The position numbers and the translations under genes are program-made. 64,000 bases of DNA from Chloroflexota bacterium (GTDB taxonomy: Bacteria > Chloroflexota > Anaerolineae > Aggregatilineales > J027), in the NCBI GenBank assembly GCA_013112715.1, contig JABFGB010000006.1:62001-126000 (forward strand), read 5' to 3'. Shown piece after piece: positions 16,528-29,778 of this stretch. The stretch's first letter is position 1. Each line of letters starts with the position of its first letter. The notes under the pieces were generated by a model. That model was not told the origin of the DNA. It saw nothing but the letters and a program-made list of their open reading frames with translations, and did not search any database.

Positions 16528-16728
16528 ATGCAAATCCAAGTTCAAGAAAATTTGGCTCAGAAACTTGAGGAATTAGCCCAACAGCAACACCGTCCCATTG
16601 ACGAACTTGTGGCAGACGCAATTCAACAATATGTCACGCGCCTAGATGAAGAAGCCCAGTTCAGAGCCGATGTACGAGCCGCTATGAAAGAGCATGAATG
16701 GTTGCTCAATGAGCTTGCAAAACAATGA
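16528..16728 (+). CDS. Antitoxin of a Doc-type toxin-antitoxin pair
   Basis: A 66-residue protein: a short beta start (MQIQVQENL), two helices (AQKLEELAQQQ and PIDELVADAIQQYVTRL) and an acidic helical tail. This is the layout of ribbon-helix-helix-type DNA-binding antitoxins, which bind the toxin through the tail. GGAGGT precedes the ATG well. Its stop overlaps the toxin start by four bases (ATGA at 16725-16728), the usual coupling in these modules. Antitoxins of this kind normally also repress their own operon; no operator was identified. Confidence 0.7.
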   Translation: MQIQVQENLAQKLEELAQQQHRPIDELVADAIQQYVTRLDEEAQFRADVRAAMKEHEWLLNELAKQ

Positions 16729-17114
16729 CCCGATATTTGACGGTAGATGAAGTCCTCGTCATTAACGAAGAAATCTTGGGTGGTGAAGCCCGTCTTCGAG
16801 ATCGAGGATTACTGGAGTCTGCTGTAGCAAGGCCGATGGCAAGCGCCTTTGGTGAGGATGCGTATCCGAGTCTATTTGAAAAAGCAGCGGCACTGCTAGA
16901 TTCGTTAAGCCGCAATCATCCCTTTGTAGATGGCAATAAACGTACCGCAACTATAGCGCTTGACCAATTTCTTAAAAAGAATGGCTGGCGACCCAAATGG
17001 AATCCTGCCGACGCCCTTCAATTTATTTTGGCAGTAGCACAGGGCCAGCGCACCATTGCTGAAATCGCCGAGTGGCTTTCAAATAATACCGAACCGATTA
17101 CCCCGACTGAATAA
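16725..17114 (+). CDS. doc: Death-on-curing (Doc) family toxin, Fic fold
   Basis: A 129-residue Fic/Doc protein. The catalytic loop is HPFVDGNKRT (residues 65-74), matching the Fic/Doc motif HxFx(D/N)GNKR; H65 would be the catalytic His. The N-terminal YLTVDEVLVINEEI is typical of Doc, the P1-type toxin that phosphorylates elongation factor Tu. The small size, the lack of a regulatory helix in the same chain and the preceding antitoxin gene support a type II toxin-antitoxin module. It is convergent with hisE, 4 bases away, and looks like an accessory cassette placed between two metabolic operons. Confidence 0.85.
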   Translation: MTRYLTVDEVLVINEEILGGEARLRDRGLLESAVARPMASAFGEDAYPSLFEKAAALLDSLSRNHPFVDGNKRTATIALDQFLKKNGWRPKWNPADALQFILAVAQGQRTIAEIAEWLSNNTEPITPTE

Positions 17115-17118
17115 AATC

Positions 17119-17406
17119 TCATCGCGGTTTATGCCGCTTATCCAATTCCGCTGCAATATCCTCCGGAGTCAGATTAAATTGGGCCAACAGCACCAAACAG
17201 TGATACGTCAGGTCGGCCATTTCAGAGATCAGTCTTTCTTGGCCTTGACCCTTCGCTGCCAACACCACTTCTACCGCTTCTTCGCCCACTTTTTTGATAA
17301 TTTCGTCCTCCCCCGCTTCAAATAAAGAATTGGTATATGAGCCAAGTTTGGGATTGGCCTTGCGGTCTTGGATAATGCCAAAAACACGTTCTAGGGTATC
17401 GCTCAC
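17119..17406 (-). CDS. hisE: Phosphoribosyl-ATP pyrophosphatase
   Basis: A 95-residue enzyme that hydrolyses phosphoribosyl-ATP to phosphoribosyl-AMP, the second step of histidine synthesis. The MazG-like core [14 protein letters not shown] and [16 protein letters not shown] holds the metal-binding Glu/Asp residues. It starts at GTG 17406, overlapping the hisI stop by four bases behind GGAGGA. HisE and HisI are separate genes here, not a fused HisIE. It is the last gene of the operon. No terminator is visible in the 4 bases before the convergent toxin gene. Confidence 0.93.
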
Positions 17407-17723
17407 GAAAGTTCCTCCAATGCACGGTAAAAACAGCTATACGCCCCCGTATGACAAGCTGGGCCAGCCGGGGCGACTTTAATTAAAAGCGTATCGGCGT
17501 CGCAATCTACCCGAATTTCGACCACCTTTTGTATATTGCCACTCGTCGCGCCCTTGTGCCAAAGTTCTTGGCGACTGCGACTCCAAAAAACGGTTTCGCC
17601 CGTCTCGATGGTTTTTTGTAGTGATTCGCGGCTCATCCATGCCATCATCAACACCTGCCCTGTGCCATCATCTTGCACGACGGCAGGCAGCAGGCCGTTT
17701 TCATCCCATTTCAGGTTGTCCAT
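17403..17723 (-). CDS. hisI: Phosphoribosyl-AMP cyclohydrolase
   Basis: A 106-residue enzyme that opens the adenine ring of phosphoribosyl-AMP, step three of histidine synthesis. [32 protein letters not shown] and the metal-binding cysteines in VDCDADTLL and [13 protein letters not shown] are the family signatures. Its ATG at 17723 lies inside hisF, which it overlaps by 23 bases, with a GGAGG about 9 bases upstream. Tight packing implies translational coupling with hisF and hisE. Confidence 0.95.
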
Positions 17724-18492
17724 CGGTTACGGCCTCCGTCAAGCGCACTGGTACGCCATTTTCATGTAGATAGGTTTTGAGATCATGAATGCTAAGTTCT
17801 TGATAATGGAACAGGCTGGCCGCAAGCACAGCTTCGGCTTTGCCCTCGGTAAAGGCGGGTAGAAAATCCTCTTTTTTGCCTGCCCCTCCCGATGCGATGA
17901 CCGGAATATTGACTGCCTCGGCAATCGCACGGGTCAGCTTCAAATCATAACCGATTTTGGTGCCATCCCGATCCATGCTGGTCAGCAAAATTTCACCCGC
18001 CCCCATCTGTTCGCCGCGCATCGCCCATTCGACGGCGTTAATGCCTGTGGGAGTGCGTCCCCCTGCGACATACACCTCAAAAAAATCGCCATTCCAGCGG
18101 GCATCAATCGCCAAGATGATGCACTGCACGCCGAAACGCTCCGCCCCTTCGCTGATAATTTCGGGGTCACGCACGGCGGCACTATTGACCGATACACGAT
18201 CCGCCCCCGCCAGCAACGTCGCCCGCATATCTTCAACCGTGCGGATACCCCCGCCCACGCTAAAGGGGATAAAAATCGAATCGGCCACGCGGCGCACCAC
18301 ATCCAACATGGTATCGCGTTTTTCGTGGGTGGCGGTGATGTCCAAAAAGACCAGTTCATCCGCCCCGGCAGCATCATAAATCATGGCCTGTTCCACCGGG
18401 TCGCCTGCGTCACGCAGATTCACAAAATTGATACCTTTAACCACCCGCCCATCTTTCACATCAAGGCAGGGAATGATTCGTTTTGCGAGCAT
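17701..18492 (-). CDS. hisF: Imidazole glycerol phosphate synthase, cyclase subunit
   Basis: A 263-residue (beta/alpha)8 barrel. With the glutaminase HisH it converts PRFAR and glutamine to imidazole glycerol phosphate and AICAR. The catalytic aspartates are present as D11 (IPCLDVKDG) and D130 ([11 protein letters not shown]); phosphate-binding turns include SVGGGIRT and [15 protein letters not shown] lies 5 bases before ATG 18492. It is separated from hisA by an unrelated small gene (18502-18948), although hisA and hisF are normally adjacent. Confidence 0.96.
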
Positions 18493-18501
18493 AGAAACAC
18501 C

Positions 18502-18948
18502 TCATTGAATAGCCCCTGATAAGATTGCTATTTCGATAATCGTCGTTGGAAAGGATGCGATAAAGAAAAATGCCAATAGCGCTTTTTTGTTGAATATCAA
18601 AAATTCAGGTATTTGTGGTTTGCCCAATATCGTGCGATCAATTGACCTGTTTCCAATACATCCAGTTAATTCAATCTCGCCGTATTCGTTTAAATCTAGG
18701 CGCGCATTCACTTTTTTGAGTGTAGTTGTAATCATCAAATAATTGATAGGAAACCCTATGATTCCGACATAAGCTAACAGCACTGCTCTAAAGAAGAACA
18801 ATCTTACTGCATTTCCTGTGTCATTAATCGCGTGCCCGGAGAGCTTGAACTCGGTTTGACTATTGCGTGAGATGATCCATCCCCTCTGTTTAAACTCATC
18901 GGCAATTTTCTCAAAGAATATCATTTGAAGGGACACATAATTGGACAT
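18502..18948 (-). CDS. Unknown two-helix membrane protein inserted in the his operon
   Basis: A 148-residue protein with two hydrophobic helices (about residues 50-72, FFFRAVLLAYVGIIGFPI, and about 122-145, ALLAFFFIASFPTTIIEI) flanking a soluble segment. No motif of a histidine enzyme or phosphatase was found. It fits between hisA (1 base away) and hisF (9 bases away) on the same strand. Its base composition is visibly richer in A and T, with more ATA, TTT and AAT codons than the his genes, which suggests a later insertion. It must be co-transcribed with the operon, but a role in histidine synthesis is not supported. Confidence 0.6.
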   Translation of the reverse strand: MSNYVSLQMIFFEKIADEFKQRGWIISRNSQTEFKLSGHAINDTGNAVRLFFFRAVLLAYVGIIGFPINYLMITTTLKKVNARLDLNEYGEIELTGCIGNRSIDRTILGKPQIPEFLIFNKKALLAFFFIASFPTTIIEIAILSGAIQ

Positions 18949-18949
18949 T

Positions 18950-19666
18950 TCACTTCAATGCCTCAAAAACCTCTTCCAACGAGAACACACCCGCATATAA
19001 CGCCCGCCCGATAATCACCCCGGCGATTTTGCCAGTGGCTTTTAAGACGCGAATATCCTCTAACTTGGCAACTCCCCCCGACGCGATGACCTGCAAGCCT
19101 GTGGCATCAGCAAGCGCGGCGGTGGATTCCACATTCACCCCCGATAAATCACCGTCTTTGTCTACATCAGTATAAAGGGCGTGTCGAATCCCATCGGCGG
19201 CAAGTCGCTGACCGAGTTCAATTGGCGACCATGTGGATTTCTCCTGCCAACCATGTGTCGCCACCTGCCCTCCTTTGGCATCCAGCGCGACGACGACCCG
19301 TTCCGCGCCAAATTTTTGCACGGCATCGGCGGCAAGTTCCGGTTGCTTAACCAATAGGGTGCCAAAAACCACTCGTTCTGCCCCGGCATCAATGGCCTGC
19401 TGTGCGGCATCAAAATTACGCAGGCCGCCTGCAAATTGCACCGATAACCCCAAATCGGCAATCTGGCGCACCGTGTCAAAAATAGTGGTTTCCGCGCCGA
19501 GCGTGCCATCCAAATTGACGATATGCACCCACTCTGCCCCGGCAGCCTGCCATTTTTTTGCCATCGCTACTGGGTCATAACCATAGACCGATTCAAGGTT
19601 GGGGTCGCCATAGAGCAACCGTACCACGCGCCCCTGTCGAATATCAATCGCGGGATAGATAATCAA
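18950..19666 (-). CDS. hisA: ProFAR isomerase (phosphoribosylformimino-AICAR-phosphate isomerase)
   Basis: A 238-residue (beta/alpha)8 barrel catalysing the Amadori isomerisation of ProFAR to PRFAR. With a TTG start at 19666 the protein begins [16 protein letters not shown] and places the catalytic aspartates at D8 and D129. This TTG shares four bases with the hisH stop (TTGA) and has a GGAGG 7 bases upstream. The longer frame from 19732 would add 22 basic residues not seen in the family and is rejected. ASGGVAKLEDI is the C-terminal phosphate-binding turn. Confidence 0.94.
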   Translation of the reverse strand: MIIYPAIDIRQGRVVRLLYGDPNLESVYGYDPVAMAKKWQAAGAEWVHIVNLDGTLGAETTIFDTVRQIADLGLSVQFAGGLRNFDAAQQAIDAGAERVVFGTLLVKQPELAADAVQKFGAERVVVALDAKGGQVATHGWQEKSTWSPIELGQRLAADGIRHALYTDVDKDGDLSGVNVESTAALADATGLQVIASGGVAKLEDIRVLKATGKIAGVIIGRALYAGVFSLEEVFEALK

Positions 19667-20271
19667 TGGATGTCCTCCACGAAATTGCGTAGGATGCGTT
19701 GGCCGACGTGCTGGCTTTTTTCGGGATGGCATTGAATTCCAAAAATGTTGCCCCGCCCAACCACACTGGCATAATTCAGGCCATAATCGGTGCTGGCGAG
19801 AATATCATTTGGGTCGGCGGCCTCGACATAATACGAGTGGACAAAATAGGCATAGTCGCCTTCATTTACCCCACGCAATAGTGGATTTTGCTGGCGGATG
19901 TGCAATTGATTCCATCCAATATGGGGGACAAGCGGGCCATTGGGTGGAAATTTGACCACCTGTCCCGGCAATAAACCCAGCCCTTGATGTGTCCCCATTT
20001 CTTCGCTGGTCTCAAATAAATATTGCATCCCCAAACAAATGCCGAGCAATGGCACACCCGCTTTGGCTGCTTGGATAATCGGCTCAACAAAGCCCGACTC
20101 GCGCAACGCTGCCATGCCTGCTCCAAATGCCCCCACTCCCGGCAGGACGATTTTATCTGCGCCGTCGAGTTCACTCGGTTTGCTGACGGTTTTGGTCTCC
20201 GCCCCGACATGCTTTAAGGTATTTTGCACACTCCGTAAATTCCCGGCCCCGTAATCTACAATGGCGATCAT
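19663..20271 (-). CDS. hisH: Imidazole glycerol phosphate synthase, glutamine amidotransferase subunit
   Basis: A 202-residue class I glutaminase that feeds ammonia to HisF. The triad is visible: C79 in [10 protein letters not shown], and H182 and E184 in QCHPEKSQ. The oxyanion-strand motif PGVGAFG is present. ATG 20271 overlaps the hisB stop by four bases, and the stop overlaps the TTG of hisA, so hisB-hisH-hisA are coupled. Confidence 0.95.
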
Positions 20272-20861
20272 TGGGTTAATGTTCCTTTCGTGCTAGGGAT
20301 GATTCCTTGACGGCGGGGGTCGAGTTCAACCGCGACACGCAGCGCCCGGCCCAATGCTTTAAATAATGCTTCGGCTTTGTGATGATCGTCGCGCCCATAA
20401 AATACTTGTGCGTGCAAATTCATCCGGGCATGGGTGGCAATAGATTCCAGTACATGGGCTACCAGTGAAGTCGGCATCTGACCAATGGGGGGAGTATCAA
20501 AATCGGCATGGACGACAGTATAGGGTCGCCCACTGAGATCAATCACCACCTGTGCCAGTGCCTCATCCATCGGAACAAGCGCCGACCCCATTCGCACAAT
20601 GCCTTTACGATCCCCCAGTGCCTCATGCAGCGCCTGCCCCAAACAAATGGCGACATCTTCAATGGTGTGATGGGAATCAATATGCAAATCCCCCTGCGCG
20701 GCGATGGTTAAATCGAATAGGCCGTGTACCGCGACATGATGCAGCATGTGGTCAAAAAAGCCGACACCAGTATGGATAGACGCCTGCCCTGTGCCATCTA
20801 ATTCGAGGCTTAACTCAATTTGGGTTTCTTGCGTGGTACGCTGAATTTTGGCACTACGCAT
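20268..20861 (-). CDS. hisB: Imidazoleglycerol-phosphate dehydratase
   Basis: A 197-residue enzyme that dehydrates imidazole glycerol phosphate to imidazole acetol phosphate. The two metal-binding repeats appear as [14 protein letters not shown] with [14 protein letters not shown], and [31 protein letters not shown] 20861 overlaps the end of hisC by eight bases and has GGAGGA upstream; the longer frame to 20960 only reads antisense of hisC. It is the monofunctional form: there is no N-terminal histidinol-phosphate phosphatase domain, so that activity must be encoded elsewhere. Confidence 0.95.
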
Positions 20862-21972
20862 TAAATTCCTCCCTGATCTGGCGCAGCACAGCCAATAACT
20901 TATCATTTTGGTCGGGCCGCCCGATGCTGATCCGCACATGTCCCGGTACTTTGCCATCATAGTACCGAATCAAGATACCCTCATTTTCCAATCGCGCCTG
21001 CAAATCGGGAATTGGCACAGTGGCAATTTTGCAAAAAACAAAGTTGGCCGCGCTTGGGTAAACATGGATATAGGGAATGGTTTTTAGTTCAGCGATTAGG
21101 CGGCCACGCTCGGCAATGATTTTTTCGATATTAGCCTGCATCGTTGGCATATCGGTCAGCGTGGCCCGTGCAGCAACATCGGCAGCGGCGCTGACATTAA
21201 ACGGCAGCTTGATTTTCCAGAGGTGTTCGATGATTTCTAGTGGATAGATGCCATAGCCAATCCGTAGTCCCGCCAAACCCGCCCATTTGCTGAAGGTGCG
21301 AATCACAATCAGGTTCGGCGTGTCCGGCACCCGCAGCGCGTTGTTTTCGACCCCCGCGAATTCAAAATAGGCTTCATCTAGCACCACAACCAGTGGTAGC
21401 TTTAAAAGTCGCTCCAAAACATCGGGCGGGGTCAGGCTGCCATCGGGATTATTGGGGGAGCAGATAAACAATAATTTCGCGCCCGTTTCATAGGCGGCTT
21501 TTTCAATCGCATCCACGTCCAGCGAAAAATCCGCGCGACGAGGAATATTGACCGTTTTTGCGCCGAGCCAGCCTGCGACCAGCGAATACATGGTAAAAGT
21601 TGGGGGACAGTTCAAAATGATGTCGCCGGGTTCAAGAAATAACTGCTCGGTGACTTTGATGATTTCGTCGCAACCCTGCCCGACCAAAATATGCTCTGGA
21701 TCAACCCCGGTATATTCCGCCAAGCCCGCCCGCAGATACGGCACACGCACATCGGGGTAGATGTGAGCGCGACCATCCATATGGGCTAAGGCTTCTAACG
21801 CTTTGGGAGATGGCCCGAATGGATTTTCATTGGTATCGAGTTTGATGATTTCGCTGGTGGGGCGACCCATGCGTTCGCTCAATAATTCGAGTGTGCCGCT
21901 GGGATACCCATAGCCCTCCATTGCGGCGATGTCTGACCGGATACGTATTTTGGGAATGTCTTGAGTCTGCAT
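20854..21972 (-). CDS. hisC: Histidinol-phosphate aminotransferase
   Basis: A 372-residue fold-type I PLP enzyme that transaminates imidazole acetol phosphate with glutamate. [21 protein letters not shown] (about 172-179), D199 in [10 protein letters not shown] and the PLP lysine K229 in [17 protein letters not shown] are all present, as is the C-terminal [11 protein letters not shown]. It follows hisD by 5 bases and overlaps hisB. Together with the other his genes, the assignment as HisC over a general aromatic aminotransferase is firm. Confidence 0.95.
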
Positions 21973-21977
21973 AGCGA

Positions 21978-23306
21978 TTACTCCTGTATTCGGGCTTCGG
22001 CAGCGGCGGCATGGGCGGTGAGTGATTCGGCATGAGCCAACACTGAAGCGGCTTTGCTAAGTTCGGCGGCGGTGTCATGGTCAAGGCCGATGACGCTGGT
22101 GATTTTGATGAAGTCTAAAATATTGAGCGGAGAGGAAAATCGTGCTGTGCCCCCGGTTGGCATGACATGGCTCGGCCCTGCCACGTAATCCCCCAACACC
22201 TCAAATGACCCCTCTCCCAAGAAAATACCCCCGGCGTTTTTGACTTCGCCAATCCACGCAAAGGGGTCTTCCAGCAGCAGGCAGAGATGTTCGGCGGCAT
22301 ACTCATTGGCAACCTCAAACGCTTCCACGAGGCCATTCACAATGACTACCCCACCTTGATTGCCGAGGGATTGTGCGATGATGCTGTCGCGGCCTAGATG
22401 TTCTAACTGACGGGCCGCTTCAATTTGCACCCGTTTGGCAAGATTGCGACTGGGGGTGACGAGAATCGCCGAGGCCAGCACATCATGTTCGGCTTGGGCC
22501 AATAAATCAGCGGCGGCAAGGGCAGGGTTGGCGGATTCATCGGCGATAATCATGGTCTCAGTCGGCCCCGGCAGACCATCAATGCCCACCACGCCAAAGA
22601 CCTGTCGTTTTGCTAATGTCACAAACAGATTGCCCGGCCCAACGATTTTGTCCACACGCGGAATGGTCTGTGTACCATAGGCCATTGCTGCAATCGCCTG
22701 CGCCCCACCCACCTTAAACACTTTTTTGATGCCACACACCGCTGCCGCCGCTAAGATGACCGGATTAACCGTGCCATCTTTTTGTGGGGGTGTGCAGATA
22801 ATAATTTCTTCAACGCCTGCCACCAATGCTGGAATCGCGCTCATCAACAGCGAGGAAGGCAGCGGCGCTGTCCCCCCCGGCACATACACCCCGACCTTGT
22901 TAATGGGGCGCAGAATTTGACCTAGCCCGTTTTCATACCAATCCGTCAGGCGTTCGGCCTGCATCCGATGGAAATTTTCGATGCGTTCTGCCGCCAATTG
23001 CAGGGCTTCGGCAACTTTTTGGGGGATTCTATCCAGTGCCTCATGAATTTCGATTTCCGGTACATACAGCGCATCAAGTTGCACACCATCAATCTTTTTT
23101 GTCCAATATCCCACCGCGTTGTCCGACCCATCCCGAATCGCCGTCAAAATCCGACGTACCGCTTCTTCGGGGGTCACTGGCCCATCAAACAATTCTTCCA
23201 GCCGTTTACTGATAGCGGGTGTTACTTCTGTTTCGTCAGGCGGACGGCGCAACAAAATCTTGGTTTTGGCATCGGCTAATGAATAAATCGGCAACAAATC
23301 AGTCAT
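21978..23306 (-). CDS. hisD: Histidinol dehydrogenase
   Basis: A 442-residue zinc enzyme that oxidises histidinol to histidine in two NAD-dependent steps, the last reactions of the pathway. Recognisable stretches are RPINKVGVYVPGGTAPLPSSLLM, KVGGAQAIAAMAYGTQTIPRVDKIVGPGN, AEHDVLASAILVT, and the C-terminal AEHLCLLLEDP and GPSHVMPTGGTARFSSPL with zinc-binding His and Asp positions. ATG 23306 overlaps the hisG stop by four bases. Confidence 0.96.
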   Translation of the reverse strand: MTDLLPIYSLADAKTKILLRRPPDETEVTPAISKRLEELFDGPVTPEEAVRRILTAIRDGSDNAVGYWTKKIDGVQLDALYVPEIEIHEALDRIPQKVAEALQLAAERIENFHRMQAERLTDWYENGLGQILRPINKVGVYVPGGTAPLPSSLLMSAIPALVAGVEEIIICTPPQKDGTVNPVILAAAAVCGIKKVFKVGGAQAIAAMAYGTQTIPRVDKIVGPGNLFVTLAKRQVFGVVGIDGLPGPTETMIIADESANPALAAADLLAQAEHDVLASAILVTPSRNLAKRVQIEAARQLEHLGRDSIIAQSLGNQGGVVIVNGLVEAFEVANEYAAEHLCLLLEDPFAWIGEVKNAGGIFLGEGSFEVLGDYVAGPSHVMPTGGTARFSSPLNILDFIKITSVIGLDHDTAAELSKAASVLAHAESLTAHAAAAEARIQE

Positions 23307-24307
23307 GGTTGTACCCCTTGAACAATAGATAATAGGCGGCGGCAGCGTTCGGGCCGTTCTTCAAAAATATAGGAAACCGGGGTCACGACCACGCCGCTCC
23401 CCCCAATGGTACGGAACTGCTGAATCGCGGGATATAGACGCGAATGGGACACTACAATGCTGACCGACCACCAATTGCCATGATGGGCTTGTGTGCCAAG
23501 CGGCGAAATGGTAGGCCATTGCAGGCCACCTAAGTCGGGTTGCCCCAATACTAGATGGGCGACCTCATCCAATGTCTCGCCTCGCATATTGGCGAAAATC
23601 ATGTATTTCCCATGTGCATTCATATAGGCTTCGATAAATTCCAATAGTTGTTCCGTCGCCGCCATGACTGCTGGACGGGTCGCCAATGCAGTGCGGTTGC
23701 CAATCAACACGGCTTGCGAATCTACAATCAGGCCATCTTCCAATGAACGCAGATTATTTTCGCGCAGAGTCGTGCCGCTGCTGGTGATGTCGGCAATAAA
23801 GTCGGCATACCCGATGCTGGGGGCTGCTTCCAGCGCTCCATCGGCGCTGACCACCCGTATGCCCGAAATTCGGCGTTCCTCCAAAAAGCGCTCTACTGAA
23901 TTGCGATATTTGGTAGCGACCCTCAGTTCTTGCTGAGTGGCTTTGACGGTTAAATCTTGGACGGTATGTACCTCTGTCCATTCCATCGGGACAGCCAGCA
24001 CCAGCGCACACTGTCCATAGTCCAGTGCCTCATGCACCAACATCAATTCCTCGGTTTCGCCGCCAAACGCATCATACACCGTGTCATAACCCGTAATGCC
24101 CAAGTCCATATCCCCCGATGACACGCTAACCGGAATATCACGGGGGCGCATGAACATGACCGTTACCCCCGGCAAGGCAGGAATCGTGGCAGTATATTGG
24201 CGCGGATTGGTTTTGTTGACACGCAAGCCGCAGTTGGCAAGGAATTCAAGGGTCTCCCCTTCCATCCGCCCTTTGCTCGGCAGTGCAATTCGTACTTGCT
24301 CATTCAT
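23303..24307 (-). CDS. hisG: ATP phosphoribosyltransferase, long form
   Basis: A 334-residue enzyme that joins ATP and PRPP, the first and feedback-controlled step of histidine synthesis. ALPSKGRMEGETLEFLANCGL is the N-terminal signature, DLGITGYDTVYD and DITSSGTTLRENNLR form the substrate and PRPP sites. The C-terminal about 85 residues, ending VVTPVSYIFEERPERCRRLL, are the PII-like regulatory domain, so this is the long form inhibited directly by histidine; no HisZ is required. ATG 24307 behind GGGAGAG/AAGGG is chosen, because the longer frame would start inside the attenuator terminator. First enzyme gene of the operon. Confidence 0.95.
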   Translation of the reverse strand: MNEQVRIALPSKGRMEGETLEFLANCGLRVNKTNPRQYTATIPALPGVTVMFMRPRDIPVSVSSGDMDLGITGYDTVYDAFGGETEELMLVHEALDYGQCALVLAVPMEWTEVHTVQDLTVKATQQELRVATKYRNSVERFLEERRISGIRVVSADGALEAAPSIGYADFIADITSSGTTLRENNLRSLEDGLIVDSQAVLIGNRTALATRPAVMAATEQLLEFIEAYMNAHGKYMIFANMRGETLDEVAHLVLGQPDLGGLQWPTISPLGTQAHHGNWWSVSIVVSHSRLYPAIQQFRTIGGSGVVVTPVSYIFEERPERCRRLLSIVQGVQP

Positions 24308-24346
24308 TCGACCCTTACTCTCCCTTTTGATGGCTACCCCATAAAC

Positions 24347-24378
24347 AAAAACGCCCCACATCCGGTTGGCGTGGAGCG
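24347..24378 (-). terminator. Attenuator terminator of the his operon
   Basis: On the minus strand CGCTCCAC (24378-24371) pairs with GTGGGGCG (24359-24352) around an 11-base loop, followed by TTTTTG. It ends about 40 bases before hisG. Inside the leader region it acts as the 3:4 hairpin of the attenuator. Confidence 0.8.
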
Positions 24379-24463
24379 CAGATTTGCTGATTTCGGGTGC
24401 GCCCTATCATGAAAATTTTTGCAGGCGCAACACACCATCACCACCGGAAATGAAGCCGGAAGT
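24347..24463 (-). promoter_or_regulatory. Histidine operon transcription attenuator (alternative pairings)
   Basis: Minus-strand segments can pair in exclusive ways. Segment 1 (24463-24456, ACTTCCGG) pairs with segment 2 (24447-24440, CCGGTGGT), with one mismatch. Segment 2 (24449-24441, TTCCGGTGG) can instead pair with the terminator loop (24369-24360, CCAACCGGAT), with one bulge. The loop's hairpin is the terminator. Segment 1 lies in the codons just after the His run and segment 2 in the last leader codons, so a ribosome stalled on His codons would mask segment 1 and free segment 2 to block termination. An additional stem (24429-24423 with 24405-24398) and a pairing of 24404-24398 with 24380-24374 may assist. 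Pairings were found by eye; no folding energy was computed. Confidence 0.7.
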
Positions 24464-24512
24464 TATGATGATGGTGATGATACACAGCGATAGAAAGTTG
24501 ATTTTTTAACAT
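24438..24512 (-). CDS. hisL: Histidine operon leader peptide (five consecutive His codons)
   Basis: A 24-codon frame, beginning MLKNQLSIAVYHHHHHNF and ending at TGA 24440-24438. Codons 12-16 (24479-24465) are CAT CAC CAT CAT CAT, and a sixth His is codon 21. It lies 130 bases upstream of hisG on the same strand, directly after a consensus promoter and before a terminator, the arrangement of the classical his leader of enterobacteria, though unrelated in sequence apart from the His run. No Shine-Dalgarno precedes it: the ATG is 7 bases after the -10 box, so it is predicted to be translated from a leaderless transcript. It is a sensor of charged tRNA-His, not a functional protein. Confidence 0.85.
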   Translation of the reverse strand: MLKNQLSIAVYHHHHHNFRLHFRW

Positions 24513-24519
24513 GGGCGAA

Positions 24520-24548
24520 AGTATAACGTTCGGGTTTTGGGCTGTCAA
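24520..24548 (-). promoter_or_regulatory. Promoter of the his operon
   Basis: On the minus strand a perfect TTGACA (24548-24543), exactly 17 bases, then TATACT (24525-24520). The expected start point is 24513-24512, at or beside the A of the leader-peptide ATG. Its -35 box lies 5 bases from the -35 box of the divergent TIR-protein promoter. Confidence 0.85.
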
Positions 24549-24553
24549 TTAGT

Positions 24554-24582
24554 TTGGACAGAATAGACGAATGTGCTAATCT
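24554..24582 (+). promoter_or_regulatory. Divergent promoter of the TIR/zinc-ribbon gene
   Basis: TTGGAC (24554-24559), 17-base spacer, TAATCT (24577-24582). The start point would be near 24589, giving a leader of about 32 bases to ATG 24621. It is back to back with the his promoter, so the two may interfere. Confidence 0.5.
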
Positions 24583-24620
24583 TGAACGTATACAAAGACA
24601 AACATTAGGGTTGGAATTTT

Positions 24621-25310
24621 ATGACGGACTATGACCGCGATCCCTTTCGGGATGAATTTGAAGATATAGATGAATTGGAACACCTCAGCGATCTTGAAGA
24701 TGAGGCGGTAGAGGCGTTTTGTGTCACCTGCCGTGAAAAAGTTGAGATGCTGAACCCACAGGCGGTTTGGACAAGCAAAGGGCGACCCGGTACACGCGGC
24801 GAATGCCCCACTTGTGGCGGCACGGTCTATCGCATGGGCAAGACCTCCGCGCACGATTTCACCTCCAAACCCAGCGCGGTGAACGTGGCCGATACACGCG
24901 GAATGGGCAAGACCAAAGCCGCGAAAATCAAAATTGAAGCCGCCACTTACATCGCCGCCGCCGCCACCGATGCCGATTTTGCCAAAAAATTAGCCGGCGA
25001 CCTCAAGGCCGTAGGTATTTCCACATGGTTGGATGACGGGGAAACCCCTGAAAATGTCAATTGGGCAGGCGGGGTACATCCGGCACTCGAACAATGCAAA
25101 AAAATGGTGGTTGTGCTGTCCCAATTTGCCATCAAAACAGGCAGCGTCGAACAAGCATGGCAATATTTCCGCAGCCAGCGCAAGACCATCATTTTGGCAT
25201 TGGTCGAACCCGTTGACCCGCCAGATGATCTACGCCGCTGTACCCGTTTTGACTGCTACACCGATTACAAAAAGGGCCTGCGTCAATTGGTTGAGGTGCT
25301 TTCAAGCTAA
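24621..25310 (+). CDS. Zinc-ribbon (DUF5679-like) and TIR-like domain protein
   Basis: A 229-residue cytoplasmic protein. After an acidic start (residues 1-30) comes a zinc ribbon with C34, C37, C62 and C65 (FCVTCREK ... ECPTCGGTVYRMG), as in the DUF5679 family. A short basic linker (GMGKTKAAKIK) leads to a TIR-like domain (about 107-229): TYIAAAATDADFAKKLAGDL, GISTWLDDGE, CKKMVVVLSQFAI, TIILALVEPV. TIR domains act as scaffolds or NAD-cleaving enzymes in immunity. The usual catalytic Glu position, after the Ser/Trp segment, reads SVEQAWQYF here and cannot be aligned with certainty. It is divergent from the his operon and 12 bases before a YtxH gene. Confidence 0.65.
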   Translation: MTDYDRDPFRDEFEDIDELEHLSDLEDEAVEAFCVTCREKVEMLNPQAVWTSKGRPGTRGECPTCGGTVYRMGKTSAHDFTSKPSAVNVADTRGMGKTKAAKIKIEAATYIAAAATDADFAKKLAGDLKAVGISTWLDDGETPENVNWAGGVHPALEQCKKMVVVLSQFAIKTGSVEQAWQYFRSQRKTIILALVEPVDPPDDLRRCTRFDCYTDYKKGLRQLVEVLSS

Positions 25311-25620: not shown

Positions 25621-27504
25621 CTAATCAAGAGGCATCAGCGTCAGCCGATATTTGGCTTCATGCAGGGTAAAGGGTGCTTGGGCGCTTACAATGACTACCG
25701 CCCCACCCTCTGGCACATTAATTTCCATGTCCGATTTGCCCGCCTCAACCGGAATATACTGGGCTTCGTTGGGATCGCTCAACTTCACCACTGCAATTGA
25801 CCAATCTTGCCCAACCGTCTGCTGTGTGCGCAAAAACCCATCAGCCACCCATTCACTATCAAGCGTTTCCACATCATCCATCAGGCCAATTTCAGGGATT
25901 TCAATATCGTCGAGCAAAAATCCCGACCCAGTTAGGGCATTGTTGGTGACATATTCAAAGCGGATTTGGATGACCTGTCCGGCATAACGCGATAGGTCAA
26001 TTTCATCGGATTCCCACCCATCGGAAGCACCCGTGTAATGCAAACCGGGGGCATCGGTGTAGCCATCAGGATATTCCATATGCTGGCCCGACAGCGGATC
26101 CCAACGCTGCCCATCATTGGTAGAGACCAAGACGTGTAGGTAATCAGGTAGCTCGCCTGTCTGCCACCACACGTTGTAACGCAGGGTTGCGCTAGGCACA
26201 TGGGTCAAATCTACAGTACGGGTCAGGCTGCTGGCGGCCCCAATCGCGTTATATGACCACCACATCCAGTCGCCAGATACGGGTGCAACATCCATCAGTG
26301 GGGTTTCAGTTGACCCGCTAAAATTTAGCTGATACTTTCCCGGAAATTCCACCGATAGGTAATCCGCCCCATACTGATTGGCGTTGCTGTTGAACACAAA
26401 CTCACGTTTGACGCTGCCCAAGTCAATCAGCGGCGGCGTTATGGTCAAGTCATAGGTTTGGTAGTAGTAGCGGCCATCGCCCACATAGGGATTATCAATC
26501 AAGCTGGCGATGTACCAATCAATCATCAACTCATTCAAAGTCGTGGTTTGCCCTGTCTGTTGCAGCGTATCATAGACCCCGGCAAGCCCATCATGCGCAT
26601 TTTGCGTAAGCGCCTTGATAAATTCCGATCCGAACCGCTCATAGAGATAGACGGCAAACAGATACCCCGCTCCATAATAAGCCGATTGTTCTTCGTAATC
26701 TAGCGACCACGAATTGAGTGGTATATTGGTATCCGACATGAACTGTTCGACATTAAAATGATTGACCTCGTTATCCACTACCCCGATGAGATGTTCAGCC
26801 AGTTGGGAAAGGCCCTCATCCATCCAGCGGTATTCGTTGCCATCGCGGTTGAACTGAATCAGGTGTTGAAACTCATGGGCCAATGTCGCGTAGTATTGTT
26901 CGCTGTCCAGTGGATTTTCATTCAGCATCATATACACCGCGTCGCGCTGATTGCTGGACGGGCAGATATGTTGGGCGCATTGGTCTTTGGGGCTAAAAAA
27001 ACCCAACAGGCCGGGATAGAACTCATTGACATGCACCAAATGAATCCGGGTGTCACCATCAATGCCGGGGCTGGCGTTTGGGCCAAAAATCTCGCGGTCT
27101 AGCCACCAAACGCGCTTGTCAAAATAGTCCGCCGTCGTCTGCAATTCATCCATGTCTATATCAGTATCCGGCTCAAACCAGAAATAGGCATACTGGCTGC
27201 GATAATAGAGTTCCATGTCATAAATATCATGGGGCGATTCCCCCAGCGCAAAGGTCGTGTGATCGCCAATTTGATAGGGGTCGGTGAAGAATGGGCCATA
27301 TACATCGGCATAGAGTTCCCAACCCCAGCGTGACCGTGCATCTCCTTCGTGGCGGAGTGGCGAGGGCGCAGGCGCGTCGGCCCATGTTAGCCTTTGTTGG
27401 CTGCTGTTAGACTCGGCTTTTGCCATCATTGTTGACGACAAGGCGATAATCAACCCGATGGCTCCCACCCAACGGAGAGATTGACGGGCACGCTGTTGAA
27501 TCAT
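25621..27504 (-). CDS. Secreted zinc metalloprotease, hyicolysin-like, copy 1
   Basis: A 627-residue exported protein with a signal peptide (core WVGAIGLIIALSSTMMAKA). The catalytic part has HEFQH (residues 210-214) followed by WMDEGLSQ, with E230 as a likely third zinc ligand: a gluzincin pattern resembling the M30 (hyicolysin) family. C-terminal modules (about 380-600) are beta-sandwiches with WWSYNAIGAASSLTRTVDL and GFLLDDIEIPEIGL, like the MAM-type domains of immune inhibitor A proteases. It should degrade proteins outside the cell. A paralogue of the same architecture lies directly upstream (27556-29502), so the pair arose by tandem duplication. Confidence 0.75.
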   Translation of the reverse strand: MIQQRARQSLRWVGAIGLIIALSSTMMAKAESNSSQQRLTWADAPAPSPLRHEGDARSRWGWELYADVYGPFFTDPYQIGDHTTFALGESPHDIYDMELYYRSQYAYFWFEPDTDIDMDELQTTADYFDKRVWWLDREIFGPNASPGIDGDTRIHLVHVNEFYPGLLGFFSPKDQCAQHICPSSNQRDAVYMMLNENPLDSEQYYATLAHEFQHLIQFNRDGNEYRWMDEGLSQLAEHLIGVVDNEVNHFNVEQFMSDTNIPLNSWSLDYEEQSAYYGAGYLFAVYLYERFGSEFIKALTQNAHDGLAGVYDTLQQTGQTTTLNELMIDWYIASLIDNPYVGDGRYYYQTYDLTITPPLIDLGSVKREFVFNSNANQYGADYLSVEFPGKYQLNFSGSTETPLMDVAPVSGDWMWWSYNAIGAASSLTRTVDLTHVPSATLRYNVWWQTGELPDYLHVLVSTNDGQRWDPLSGQHMEYPDGYTDAPGLHYTGASDGWESDEIDLSRYAGQVIQIRFEYVTNNALTGSGFLLDDIEIPEIGLMDDVETLDSEWVADGFLRTQQTVGQDWSIAVVKLSDPNEAQYIPVEAGKSDMEINVPEGGAVVIVSAQAPFTLHEAKYRLTLMPLD

Positions 27505-27555: not shown

Positions 27556-29502
27556 TTACTGGGCTGTAATGGTCAGGTTGAAATTAGCTGGAATGATGGT
27601 GACGGGTGCAAGACCAGAGACAACCAGTGTCCAGTTTTTGACATCGCCACCAAGCGGGAGTGTCCATTCACCGGAGGGGGCATTTTCATCGGTAAGCAGT
27701 AGCTCAACCGTAATCGTGCCATCCGCCATTTCTTGAATCAACTGCAAAGTAAAGGACTGACGCAGCACATTATCAATCTGTGCCCAACCTTCAGTTACCC
27801 AACTGGTATCAATAGGTTGCTCAAAATCATCACTAAAGCCGATTTCGGGGATGCTGACATCATCCAGCAAGAATCCGTCACGCACCACCGCATCATCGGT
27901 GATGTATTCAAAACGTAGCTGGATTTTTTGACCTGCATAGGCCGAGAGGTCAATCGTTTCCTGCACCCAATCGCCCGATGTAGCCGTATAGCCTGCGCCG
28001 TAACCTGTGTTAAACGGATTTTCGGTGGTGGTGCGGTCAGTCGCAATGGGTGTCCATGTTGTGCCGTCGGTGCTGATCATCACATAAGCAAAATCCCATA
28101 GTTCTTCGATGTTGTACCATGCCCAAAAGGTCAGGGTGGCACTGCGGACACTGGTTAAATCTACCTCGCGGGTTAGACGAGCATCGCTGTCATCCACGCG
28201 GTTTGACCACATAGCAAATTGACCACTGTGGGCGCTCGTGGGAATCACAGGTACGGTTTCGTTGCCACTGAATTGAATCGTCACATTTTGCGCGTCTGGC
28301 CCACCTTTGAGGGTATAGTAATTCGTACCCCACTGATTGACCGATTCATGCTCCATTGTCGTTGGGAGGCCGATTTGCTCTACCCCACCAGTAATCTCAA
28401 CAATCTCGGCTAAGTCAGGGTGGGTATAGACATAACGACCGTCTCCTACCTTCGCGTCATTGAGGTAATTGGCGGCTGTCCACTCCGCAAAGACTTGTGA
28501 AGCAGTTATTGGTTCACCCGTCAGTGGGTCGGTAATGGCGAGTGCATCCAACGTATTTTGCACACTTTGCATCCCATTAGCATCGTCAGCCACCATTGTT
28601 TTGATAAATTCGATGCCAAAGCGTTCCAGCAGATAGGCGTTAAACAAAAATGACGCGCCATACACCACGCCTCGGTCATCTTCGGGCCAGTGCGTCAACT
28701 GCGTCGAGGGTTCGTTGAGAAATGAGGGCGTAAAATCGCTTGGCCCATAACCTCCAATGAAAGCTGACAGTTCGCTAAGGCCCTCATTGACCCATGAGGT
28801 TTCATTGGCATCATTGACCCAGTGAATCATGTGTTGAAATTCATGCGCTAGTACGCCGACATAGTAGGGTGAGCCAATATAAGGCAGCATCGTGTCCAAG
28901 TTCACATAGAACATTTCTTTTTCATTCGATGAGGAAACGGCCTCATTGGGGTATTCTTGCTCGCTGTAATAATAGGCTGCGATGTAAGCCCCTAGATTAG
29001 ATACATGGAGAACATGCAGGCGGGGGTCGCCATCAATTCCCGGCGACCATTCGCTCCCAAACACATCTCGCGCTGGCTCATAAACCTGCGTGGCGAATTC
29101 ATCGGCAGCATTCTTCAGGCTATCGTAATCAACTGTGTAGCCATCTTCGACCCACATATAGATGACATCGTTCAGGTAAACCAACGTAGCATCTACTGTG
29201 AATAGGCCCGTCTCATCATTTTGGGCAAAAAACTGCTCAACATCCCCGACCTGATAGGTTTTGGCGGGGGTGGTCGGCGGCGGGGCAATTTCCCCGACTC
29301 CTTTTAGACGTTGGGCAAGATCAAGCCGATCACGCGGCGGAACGACAGCAGCAGCAAGGGCTTGTTCGGTCAAAAATTGTTTATTGTCCTGCGCTCGCAC
29401 AGGTGATTGCAGGGTAACGACGCCAGCGACTATTGCAATGATGAGACCTAAAGCGGGTAGCCGTTGGGTAAATATAGCAATAGGGGTACGGGGAGTTTTC
29501 AA
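27556..29502 (-). CDS. Secreted zinc metalloprotease, hyicolysin-like, copy 2
   Basis: A 648-residue paralogue of the downstream gene. With the TTG start at 29502 (AAAGAGG 5 bases upstream) it begins MKTPRTPIAIFTQRL, followed by a signal peptide ending near SPVRAQD. The GTG at 29532 is an alternative start. HEFQHMIHW (about residues 220-228) and WVNEGLSEL give the zinc site. The C-terminal beta-sandwich has MWSNRVDDSDARLTREVDLTS and GFLLDDVSIPEIGFSDDFE, clearly homologous to copy 1, and it ends in an extra beta-rich segment. The two genes are 51 bases apart on the same strand. Confidence 0.75.
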   Translation of the reverse strand: MKTPRTPIAIFTQRLPALGLIIAIVAGVVTLQSPVRAQDNKQFLTEQALAAAVVPPRDRLDLAQRLKGVGEIAPPPTTPAKTYQVGDVEQFFAQNDETGLFTVDATLVYLNDVIYMWVEDGYTVDYDSLKNAADEFATQVYEPARDVFGSEWSPGIDGDPRLHVLHVSNLGAYIAAYYYSEQEYPNEAVSSSNEKEMFYVNLDTMLPYIGSPYYVGVLAHEFQHMIHWVNDANETSWVNEGLSELSAFIGGYGPSDFTPSFLNEPSTQLTHWPEDDRGVVYGASFLFNAYLLERFGIEFIKTMVADDANGMQSVQNTLDALAITDPLTGEPITASQVFAEWTAANYLNDAKVGDGRYVYTHPDLAEIVEITGGVEQIGLPTTMEHESVNQWGTNYYTLKGGPDAQNVTIQFSGNETVPVIPTSAHSGQFAMWSNRVDDSDARLTREVDLTSVRSATLTFWAWYNIEELWDFAYVMISTDGTTWTPIATDRTTTENPFNTGYGAGYTATSGDWVQETIDLSAYAGQKIQLRFEYITDDAVVRDGFLLDDVSIPEIGFSDDFEQPIDTSWVTEGWAQIDNVLRQSFTLQLIQEMADGTITVELLLTDENAPSGEWTLPLGGDVKNWTLVVSGLAPVTIIPANFNLTITAQ

Positions 29503-29778
29503 GTGAACCTCTTTCTGGCGATTAAAAAACACTATAGCATAATTTCCACTGTCTTCATCAACTCCTCATCAATTTTTCGGAGTTTCTCATGCAAGATGTC
29601 CAACTGCTCTAACATAAAGCCGGGAGTGCCACGCTTGGGTATAATTTCTTAGGATAGAGAACCTTCTGTTTTTAATGGACGACCAACAGGTAATCAATGT
29701 TCCAAAATAGTACACCGACGGAGCGAGACAGGCTCAATAAAATACTATCCGAACTTATTGCTAACAAAGGAATTTCGA

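What the first reader, a model, noticed from the sequence alone, without database searches (positions are those of the whole stretch)
24347..24548. A complete his transcription attenuator with a leaderless leader peptide
Seen: a perfect-spacing promoter (TTGACA-17-TATACT), a 24-codon frame with five consecutive His codons beginning 7 bases after the -10 box and with no ribosome-binding site, exclusive pairings between leader codons 17-20, codons 22-25 and the terminator loop, and a terminator 40 bases before hisG. Known: ribosome-mediated attenuation by a His-codon leader is classical in enterobacteria; leaderless genes are known in several phyla. Inferred: the same control logic operates here, in what looks like a Chloroflexota genome, with translation starting from a leaderless transcript. 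I do not know whether this has been described in that phylum.
Basis: partly seen in the sequence, partly recalled or inferred. Interest (0 to 1): 0.85.

Follow-up and report, generated by a model that had tools for sequence, protein, structure and literature searches.

The report
Leaderless histidine attenuator of the his operon
Upstream of the histidine-synthesis operon lies a short RNA switch whose leader peptide, rich in histidine codons, appears to be translated from the very first base of the transcript; it is conserved across much of the bacterial class Anaerolineae (Chloroflexota), where I found no earlier description of it.

Summary
Confirmed and extended. The minus strand carries TTGACA-17-TATACT, 7 nt, then ATG (24512), encoding MLKNQLSIAVYHHHHHNFRLHFRW*. 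A terminator (24379-24343) follows, then hisG (ATG 24307), which has a strong Shine-Dalgarno, and a complete his operon. Modelling a ribosome as an RNA block gives a codon-specific switch: the antiterminator forms when the A site is on codons 12-16, the five His codons (P 0.53-0.94). Elsewhere the terminator forms (P about 0.99; 0.79 at codon 17). The same arrangement (promoter, AUG with a predicted 0-3 nt 5' UTR, in-frame His run, alternative pairings, terminator, hisG) recurs throughout hisG-first his operons of Anaerolineae: 58 of 80 scanned GTDB contigs, including Ornatilinea apprima. Among 49 loci chosen only for a promoter 7-10 nt before an ATG, 47 have a His cluster in that frame, against 1 and 0 in the other frames. 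Leader starts lack Shine-Dalgarno sequences (8/61 against 59/61 for hisG). Best explanation: classical ribosome-mediated his attenuation with leaderless or near-leaderless initiation. Both halves are known elsewhere; the combination in Chloroflexota appears undescribed in the held library. A new variant of a known kind. All evidence is computational: no 5' ends mapped, no read-through measured.

The parts
24520..24548 (-). sigma-70-type promoter: TTGACA (24548-24543), 17-nt spacer, TATACT (24525-24520); predicted transcript start at 24512, the A of the leader ATG
   Evidence: sequence, scan; the A at -10+8 is present in 20/20 non-redundant relatives of this spacing class, preceded by a pyrimidine in 19/20
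24438..24512 (-). leader peptide ORF MLKNQLSIAVYHHHHHNFRLHFRW*, predicted leaderless
   Evidence: near-identical in four other genomes of the genus; His-run leader conserved in relatives
24465..24479 (-). His codons 12-16 (CAT CAC CAT CAT CAT): control codons; 24476-24466 also form the 5' arm of the anti-antiterminator hairpin
   Evidence: duplex with the downstream region better than 100/100 shuffles
24433..24448 (-). competing strand: UGGUGAUGGUG pairs with the His codons when no ribosome covers them; UCCGGU-GGUG pairs with the terminator 5' arm and loop when a ribosome is stalled on His codons
24343..24379 (-). intrinsic terminator: GCGCUCCACGCC-AACC-GG(A)UGUGGGGCGU then UUUUGUUU; loop and 5' arm also form the antiterminator
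23303..24307 (-). hisG, first gene of the operon, with its own Shine-Dalgarno (GGGAGA/AAGGG)
   Evidence: PF01634 and PF08029; Shine-Dalgarno energy -9.0
17119..23306 (-). rest of the his operon: hisD, hisC, hisB, hisH, hisA, an unknown ORF (18502-18948), hisF, hisI, hisE
   Evidence: Pfam

Best explanation
Ribosome-mediated transcription attenuation of the hisGDCBHA-x-FIE operon by charged tRNA-His. Transcription starts at the A of the leader AUG (24512), and a ribosome loads on this 5'-terminal AUG without a Shine-Dalgarno. With enough charged tRNA-His, the ribosome runs through five His codons to the stop, which lies inside the competing strand. It masks that strand, the terminator forms, and transcription ends before hisG. 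With scarce charged tRNA-His, the ribosome stalls on codons 12-16. It hides the His-codon arm, and the freed strand (24448-24433) pairs with the terminator's 5' arm and loop, so RNA polymerase reads through. With no translation, the His codons pair with the competing strand (11 bp) and the terminator forms by default. Shown by sequence and computation: the parts, their conservation, the frame-specific His codons and the codon-specific structural switch. Inferred: the exact transcript start, leaderless initiation, and the response to histidine.
For: Window switch: with the A site on codons 12-16 the antiterminator probability is 0.53-0.94; at codons 1-11 and 18-25 the terminator is 0.96-0.99; codon 17 is intermediate (0.79). 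The pattern shifts by only about one codon for footprints of +9 to +15. Across 52 non-redundant leaders, stalling raises pairing of the terminator 5' arm from 0.42 (no ribosome) to 0.69 and the stop position lowers it to 0.26; shuffled spacers give a stall-minus-none gain of 0.06 (largest set mean 0.11) against 0.27 observed. His-blind test: 47 of 49 loci with a promoter 7-10 nt before an ATG have at least 3 His codons within 8 in frame 0, 1 in frame +1, 0 in frame +2. Promoter placement: 48/56 leader starts, 1/56 hisG starts, 4/2079 other ATGs (leader starts among in-frame candidates were picked with the -10 box, but a promoter-blind rule gave gaps of 7-11 in 52/61). Shine-Dalgarno of -5 kcal/mol or better: 8/61 leaders against 59/61 hisG. 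Terminator found in 57/61 and with compensatory changes in one family. 58/80 loci from GTDB genomes carry the arrangement.
Against: No transcript 5' end, no ribosome profiling and no histidine-starvation data. Three relatives look leadered or atypical: L008 and L009 (AUG 47 and 26 nt after the best -10 box) and L032 (GAGGAAG before a GTG), so leaderlessness is not universal. In full-length equilibrium folds the terminator wins even with a stalled ribosome in many relatives, so a kinetic (co-transcriptional) switch must be assumed there. In f34, f42, f28 and f55 the His codons mostly do not themselves pair downstream. The codon-specificity peak across all relatives is broader than in the window (26/52 peaks in the His cluster against 17.9 expected).
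Confidence: 0.9

Rival explanations
1. Classical his attenuator with a normal, leadered transcript: transcription starts further upstream, and the leader ORF is translated by weak or SD-less internal initiation.
For: A few relatives (L008, L009, L032) have longer predicted 5' UTRs, L032 with a Shine-Dalgarno. Alternative upstream starts were not tested experimentally.
Against: The consensus -35/-10 sits 7-10 nt before the AUG in 48/56 non-redundant relatives, with the expected initiating purine at -10+7 or +8. Leaders lack Shine-Dalgarno sequences. No other promoter was found in 24250-24700.
Confidence: 0.06
2. The CAT/CAC repeat is only an RNA arm or protein/tRNA-binding element (riboswitch, T-box or RNA-binding protein); the ORF is incidental.
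For: The His codons do form an 11-bp RNA arm in the window.
Against: The His run is in frame with the AUG in 47 loci and out of frame in 1. Outside the own order the run often does not pair downstream yet is kept. There are no Rfam hits, T-box included, at the his leaders searched, whereas trpE in the same genomes does give T-box hits.
Confidence: 0.03
3. Chance: an ordinary promoter and terminator with a coincidental His-rich short ORF.
For: Short ORFs and terminators are common; the promoter scan alone expects 0.8 hits in this stretch.
Against: Class-wide conservation with variable sequence but fixed anatomy and the frame test.
Confidence: 0.01

Closest known systems
Enterobacterial his attenuator (hisL of E. 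coli/Salmonella; Rfam His_leader)
   Same: His-run leader peptide, mutually exclusive hairpins, intrinsic terminator just before hisG, complete his operon controlled
   Different: hisL has a 5' UTR with a ribosome-binding site (from general knowledge); no Rfam match here; leader predicted to start at +1
Leaderless leader-peptide attenuators of Actinobacteria (S. lividans leuL/trpL/ilvL/metL/thrL, PMC8079986; mycobacterial polycysteine leaderless ORFs, Canestrari 2020, cited in PMC9031893)
   Same: leader peptide ORF beginning at the transcript 5' end, control codons for the product amino acid
   Different: other amino acids and phyla; several lack a clear terminator; no his example in that list
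Sinorhizobium meliloti trpL (rnTrpL starts with the trpL ATG; PMC7298713)
   Same: leaderless attenuator leader peptide with transcription attenuation
   Different: Trp, Alphaproteobacteria
Candidate his attenuators in Firmicutes (PMC9413887; hisS/hisZ leader in bacilli, PMC2965389)
   Same: His-codon leader peptide with terminator/antiterminator upstream of his genes
   Different: different phylum; leaderlessness is not mentioned in the passages read
T-box leaders
   Same: sense uncharged tRNA to control terminator formation
   Different: no leader peptide; found at trpE, not his, in these genomes

Membership tests
ribosome-mediated (leader peptide) transcription attenuator of his | short ORF with a run of codons for the pathway's amino acid upstream of the first gene | tested here: met
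   five His codons; frame-specific in 47/49 loci
ribosome-mediated (leader peptide) transcription attenuator of his | intrinsic terminator between leader and first structural gene | tested here: met
   24379-24343; found in 57/61 relatives
ribosome-mediated (leader peptide) transcription attenuator of his | mutually exclusive antiterminator that forms when the ribosome stalls on the control codons | tested here: met
   computed per codon and against a null over 52 leaders; computational only
ribosome-mediated (leader peptide) transcription attenuator of his | read-through rises when charged tRNA-His is limiting | not testable with these tools
   needs an experiment
Rfam His_leader | match to the covariance model | tested here: not met
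   no his-leader match at E up to 10 or at gathering threshold over the window
leaderless mRNA | transcript start at, or within about 5 nt of, the start codon | tested here: inconclusive
   promoter geometry predicts 0 nt; 5' end not mapped
leaderless mRNA | no Shine-Dalgarno before the start codon | tested here: met
   +0.1 kcal/mol against -9.0 for hisG
T-box | T-box covariance model match | tested here: not met
   no match at the window or the other his leaders searched; matches at trpE

The most novel reading that the evidence does not exclude
Starting at (or within 3 nt of) the transcript end is a selected, working part of the his attenuator across a whole bacterial class, in a phylum predicted to use leaderless genes sparingly: a 70S ribosome loads on the AUG as soon as it leaves RNA polymerase, setting ribosome and polymerase in step without the usual initiation region.
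Probability: 0.45. Interest if true: 0.72.

Novelty: new variant of a known kind. Interest (0 to 1): 0.6.

Why it matters
It extends peptide-based attenuation to Chloroflexota, beyond the groups named in the papers read (Proteobacteria, Actinobacteria, Firmicutes), and pairs it with predicted leaderless initiation conserved across the class. A 2011 computational survey found few leaderless genes in Chloroflexi (4.7% on average, in 4 of 12 genomes; PMC3160421). The system gives dozens of natural variants for asking why attenuator leaders in distant phyla so often start at +1, and how a ribosome that binds a bare 5' AUG keeps pace with RNA polymerase. It also shows his (leader peptide) and trp (T-box) sensing the same kind of signal by different RNA devices in one genome.

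Tried and rejected
Rfam at loose thresholds: nothing. Looking for the same device at trpE and ilvB of the family: trpE has a T-box instead, ilvB has no leader ORF. Looking in 6 kb upstream of hisG in lineages where hisG is not first or has no leader (families f3, f6, f7, f11, f18, f23, f52, f73): none found. hisG upstreams outside the class: none in 20. Strict rule of '0 or exactly 3 nt' 5' UTR suggested: softened to 0-3 nt after one search showed gaps of 6 and 8. Own-genome pattern search for other leaderless leader peptides: 40 promoter-ATG sites against 15 in the reversed control, several starting long genes, no other amino-acid leader recognised among the 30 read.

Full report
Observation. 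hisG heads a complete his operon, hisG-D-C-B-H-A-x-F-I-E (Pfam). The leader folds better than all 200 shuffles.

Mechanism in the window. I treated the ribosome as a block on the RNA from the 5' end to 12 nt beyond the first base of the A-site codon and computed pairing probabilities. With no ribosome, or with the A site at codons 1-11, the terminator has probability 0.96-0.99. At codons 12, 13, 14, 15 and 16, the five His codons, the antiterminator rises to 0.53, 0.62, 0.91, 0.94 and 0.91 and the terminator falls to 0.43, 0.34, 0.04, 0.00 and 0.03. Codon 17 is intermediate (terminator 0.79). From codon 18 to the stop the terminator is back to 0.99. Footprints of 9 or 15 nt move the window by about one codon. 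The permissive window therefore coincides with the His run.

Comparative evidence. hisG searches in the family, order, class and phylum, with upstream regions fetched, gave 61 loci with a His-rich leader ORF upstream of hisG. They are near-identical in the genus and strongly diverged elsewhere, for example MKPSLPHVHAHHHANRTPGTRPGGDGCVRA, MPVLKTAVHHHHHPYTYREPIWWWCCMQG and MKYALKHHHHHIQPPHGREVYVRVPVTK. A separate scan of GTDB genomes with a HisG alignment found the arrangement at 58 of 80 loci. Nearly all carry Chloroflexota/Anaerolineae titles, including Ornatilinea apprima P3M-1 and MAGs labelled Anaerolinea, Thermoflexus, Brevefilum and Promineifilum. This scan partly overlaps the first set of genomes. 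No His leader was found at 20 hisG loci outside the class, nor in lineages of the class where hisG is internal to another operon layout or lies behind a short upstream region.

Two tests avoid circularity. First, I selected hisG upstream regions only for a promoter 7-10 nt before an ATG, blind to His: 49 loci. At least 3 His codons in 8 occurred in frame 0 in 47, in frame +1 in 1 and in frame +2 in 0; the two exceptions still have two His. The repeat is therefore read as codons from that AUG. Second, with the start chosen without regard to the promoter, the best promoter lay 7-11 nt upstream in 52 of 61.

Leaderlessness. Counting bases after the -10 box, the 7-nt class has the A of AUG at position 8 in 20/20, preceded by a pyrimidine in 19/20. 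The 9-nt class has a purine at position 7 in 12/12. The 10-nt class has a purine at position 8 in 16/16. Predicted 5' UTRs are thus about 0 or 3 nt in these classes; a few loci with gaps of 6 or 8 make 0-3 nt the safer statement. Shine-Dalgarno pairing is weak at leaders and strong at hisG in the same loci (8/61 against 59/61 at -5 kcal/mol or better). The own genome also has long genes with the same promoter-ATG geometry (L149, L153, L157, L165). Exceptions are L008 and L009 (longer predicted UTR) and L032 (GTG with a Shine-Dalgarno).

Structure across relatives. A terminator was found in 57/61. In one family its stem keeps 99.3% of cells paired with changes on both sides at two pairs (1/500 shuffles as high for pairing and for covariation score). 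For 52 non-redundant leaders, stalling on the His codons raises sequestration of the terminator 5' arm above the no-ribosome state by 0.27 and above the ribosome-at-stop state by 0.42, against 0.06 and 0.14 for shuffled spacers. In the own order the His codons themselves usually pair downstream; in several other families they do not, so the first hairpin has been rebuilt differently. In many relatives the full-length terminator wins at equilibrium even with a stalled ribosome, so a co-transcriptional decision is assumed there.

Placement against known systems. It works like the enterobacterial his attenuator and meets the sequence-level definition of a leader-peptide attenuator, but it does not match any Rfam model. 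Leaderless leader peptides are documented in Streptomyces (PMC8079986), mycobacteria (cited in PMC9031893) and Sinorhizobium (PMC7298713). His attenuators are documented in Proteobacteria and Firmicutes (PMC9413887; PMC2965389). Searches of the held library found no description in Chloroflexota; subscription journals and preprints are not held, so this is not proof of novelty. A 2011 computational survey found leaderless genes in 4 of 12 Chloroflexi genomes, at 4.7% on average (PMC3160421).

Verdict. A real his attenuator whose leader peptide is most likely translated from a leaderless transcript, conserved across much of Anaerolineae. It is a new variant of a known kind. Untested: 5' end, translation, and response to histidine.

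Noticed in passing
L179 1049-1334 (own genome, G000:C24, upstream of trpE); L174 1146-1377: T-box leader (Rfam RF00230, 94.5 and 127.6 bits) upstream of trpE in the own genome and a family member: trp uses direct tRNA sensing while his uses a leader peptide.
   Followed up: partly
leader promoters of about 60 Anaerolineae loci: Predicted 5' UTRs cluster at 0 or 3 nt (AUG at +1 or +4), rarely 1-2 nt; the 3-nt class starts with codons such as ACC, ACU, AUU, AAU or AAC. Reason unknown.
   Followed up: partly
L032 (locus, minus-strand match): A relative in the same order with the same attenuator layout but an apparently leadered GTG start with a GAGGAAG Shine-Dalgarno: a natural switch between the two initiation modes.
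   Followed up: no
24621-25310 (+): Divergently transcribed protein with a DUF5679 domain and a TIR domain next to the his promoter.
   Followed up: no
16725-17114 (+): Fic/DOC-family protein convergent with the end of the his operon.
   Followed up: no
18502-18948 (-): 148-aa protein without Pfam match, with hydrophobic stretches by eye, between hisA and hisF in the his operon.
   Followed up: no
25621-27504 and 27556-29532 (-): Two tandem proteins of about 630-660 aa with an InhA-like MAM domain; both contain an HEFQH motif, so likely secreted metalloproteases.
   Followed up: no
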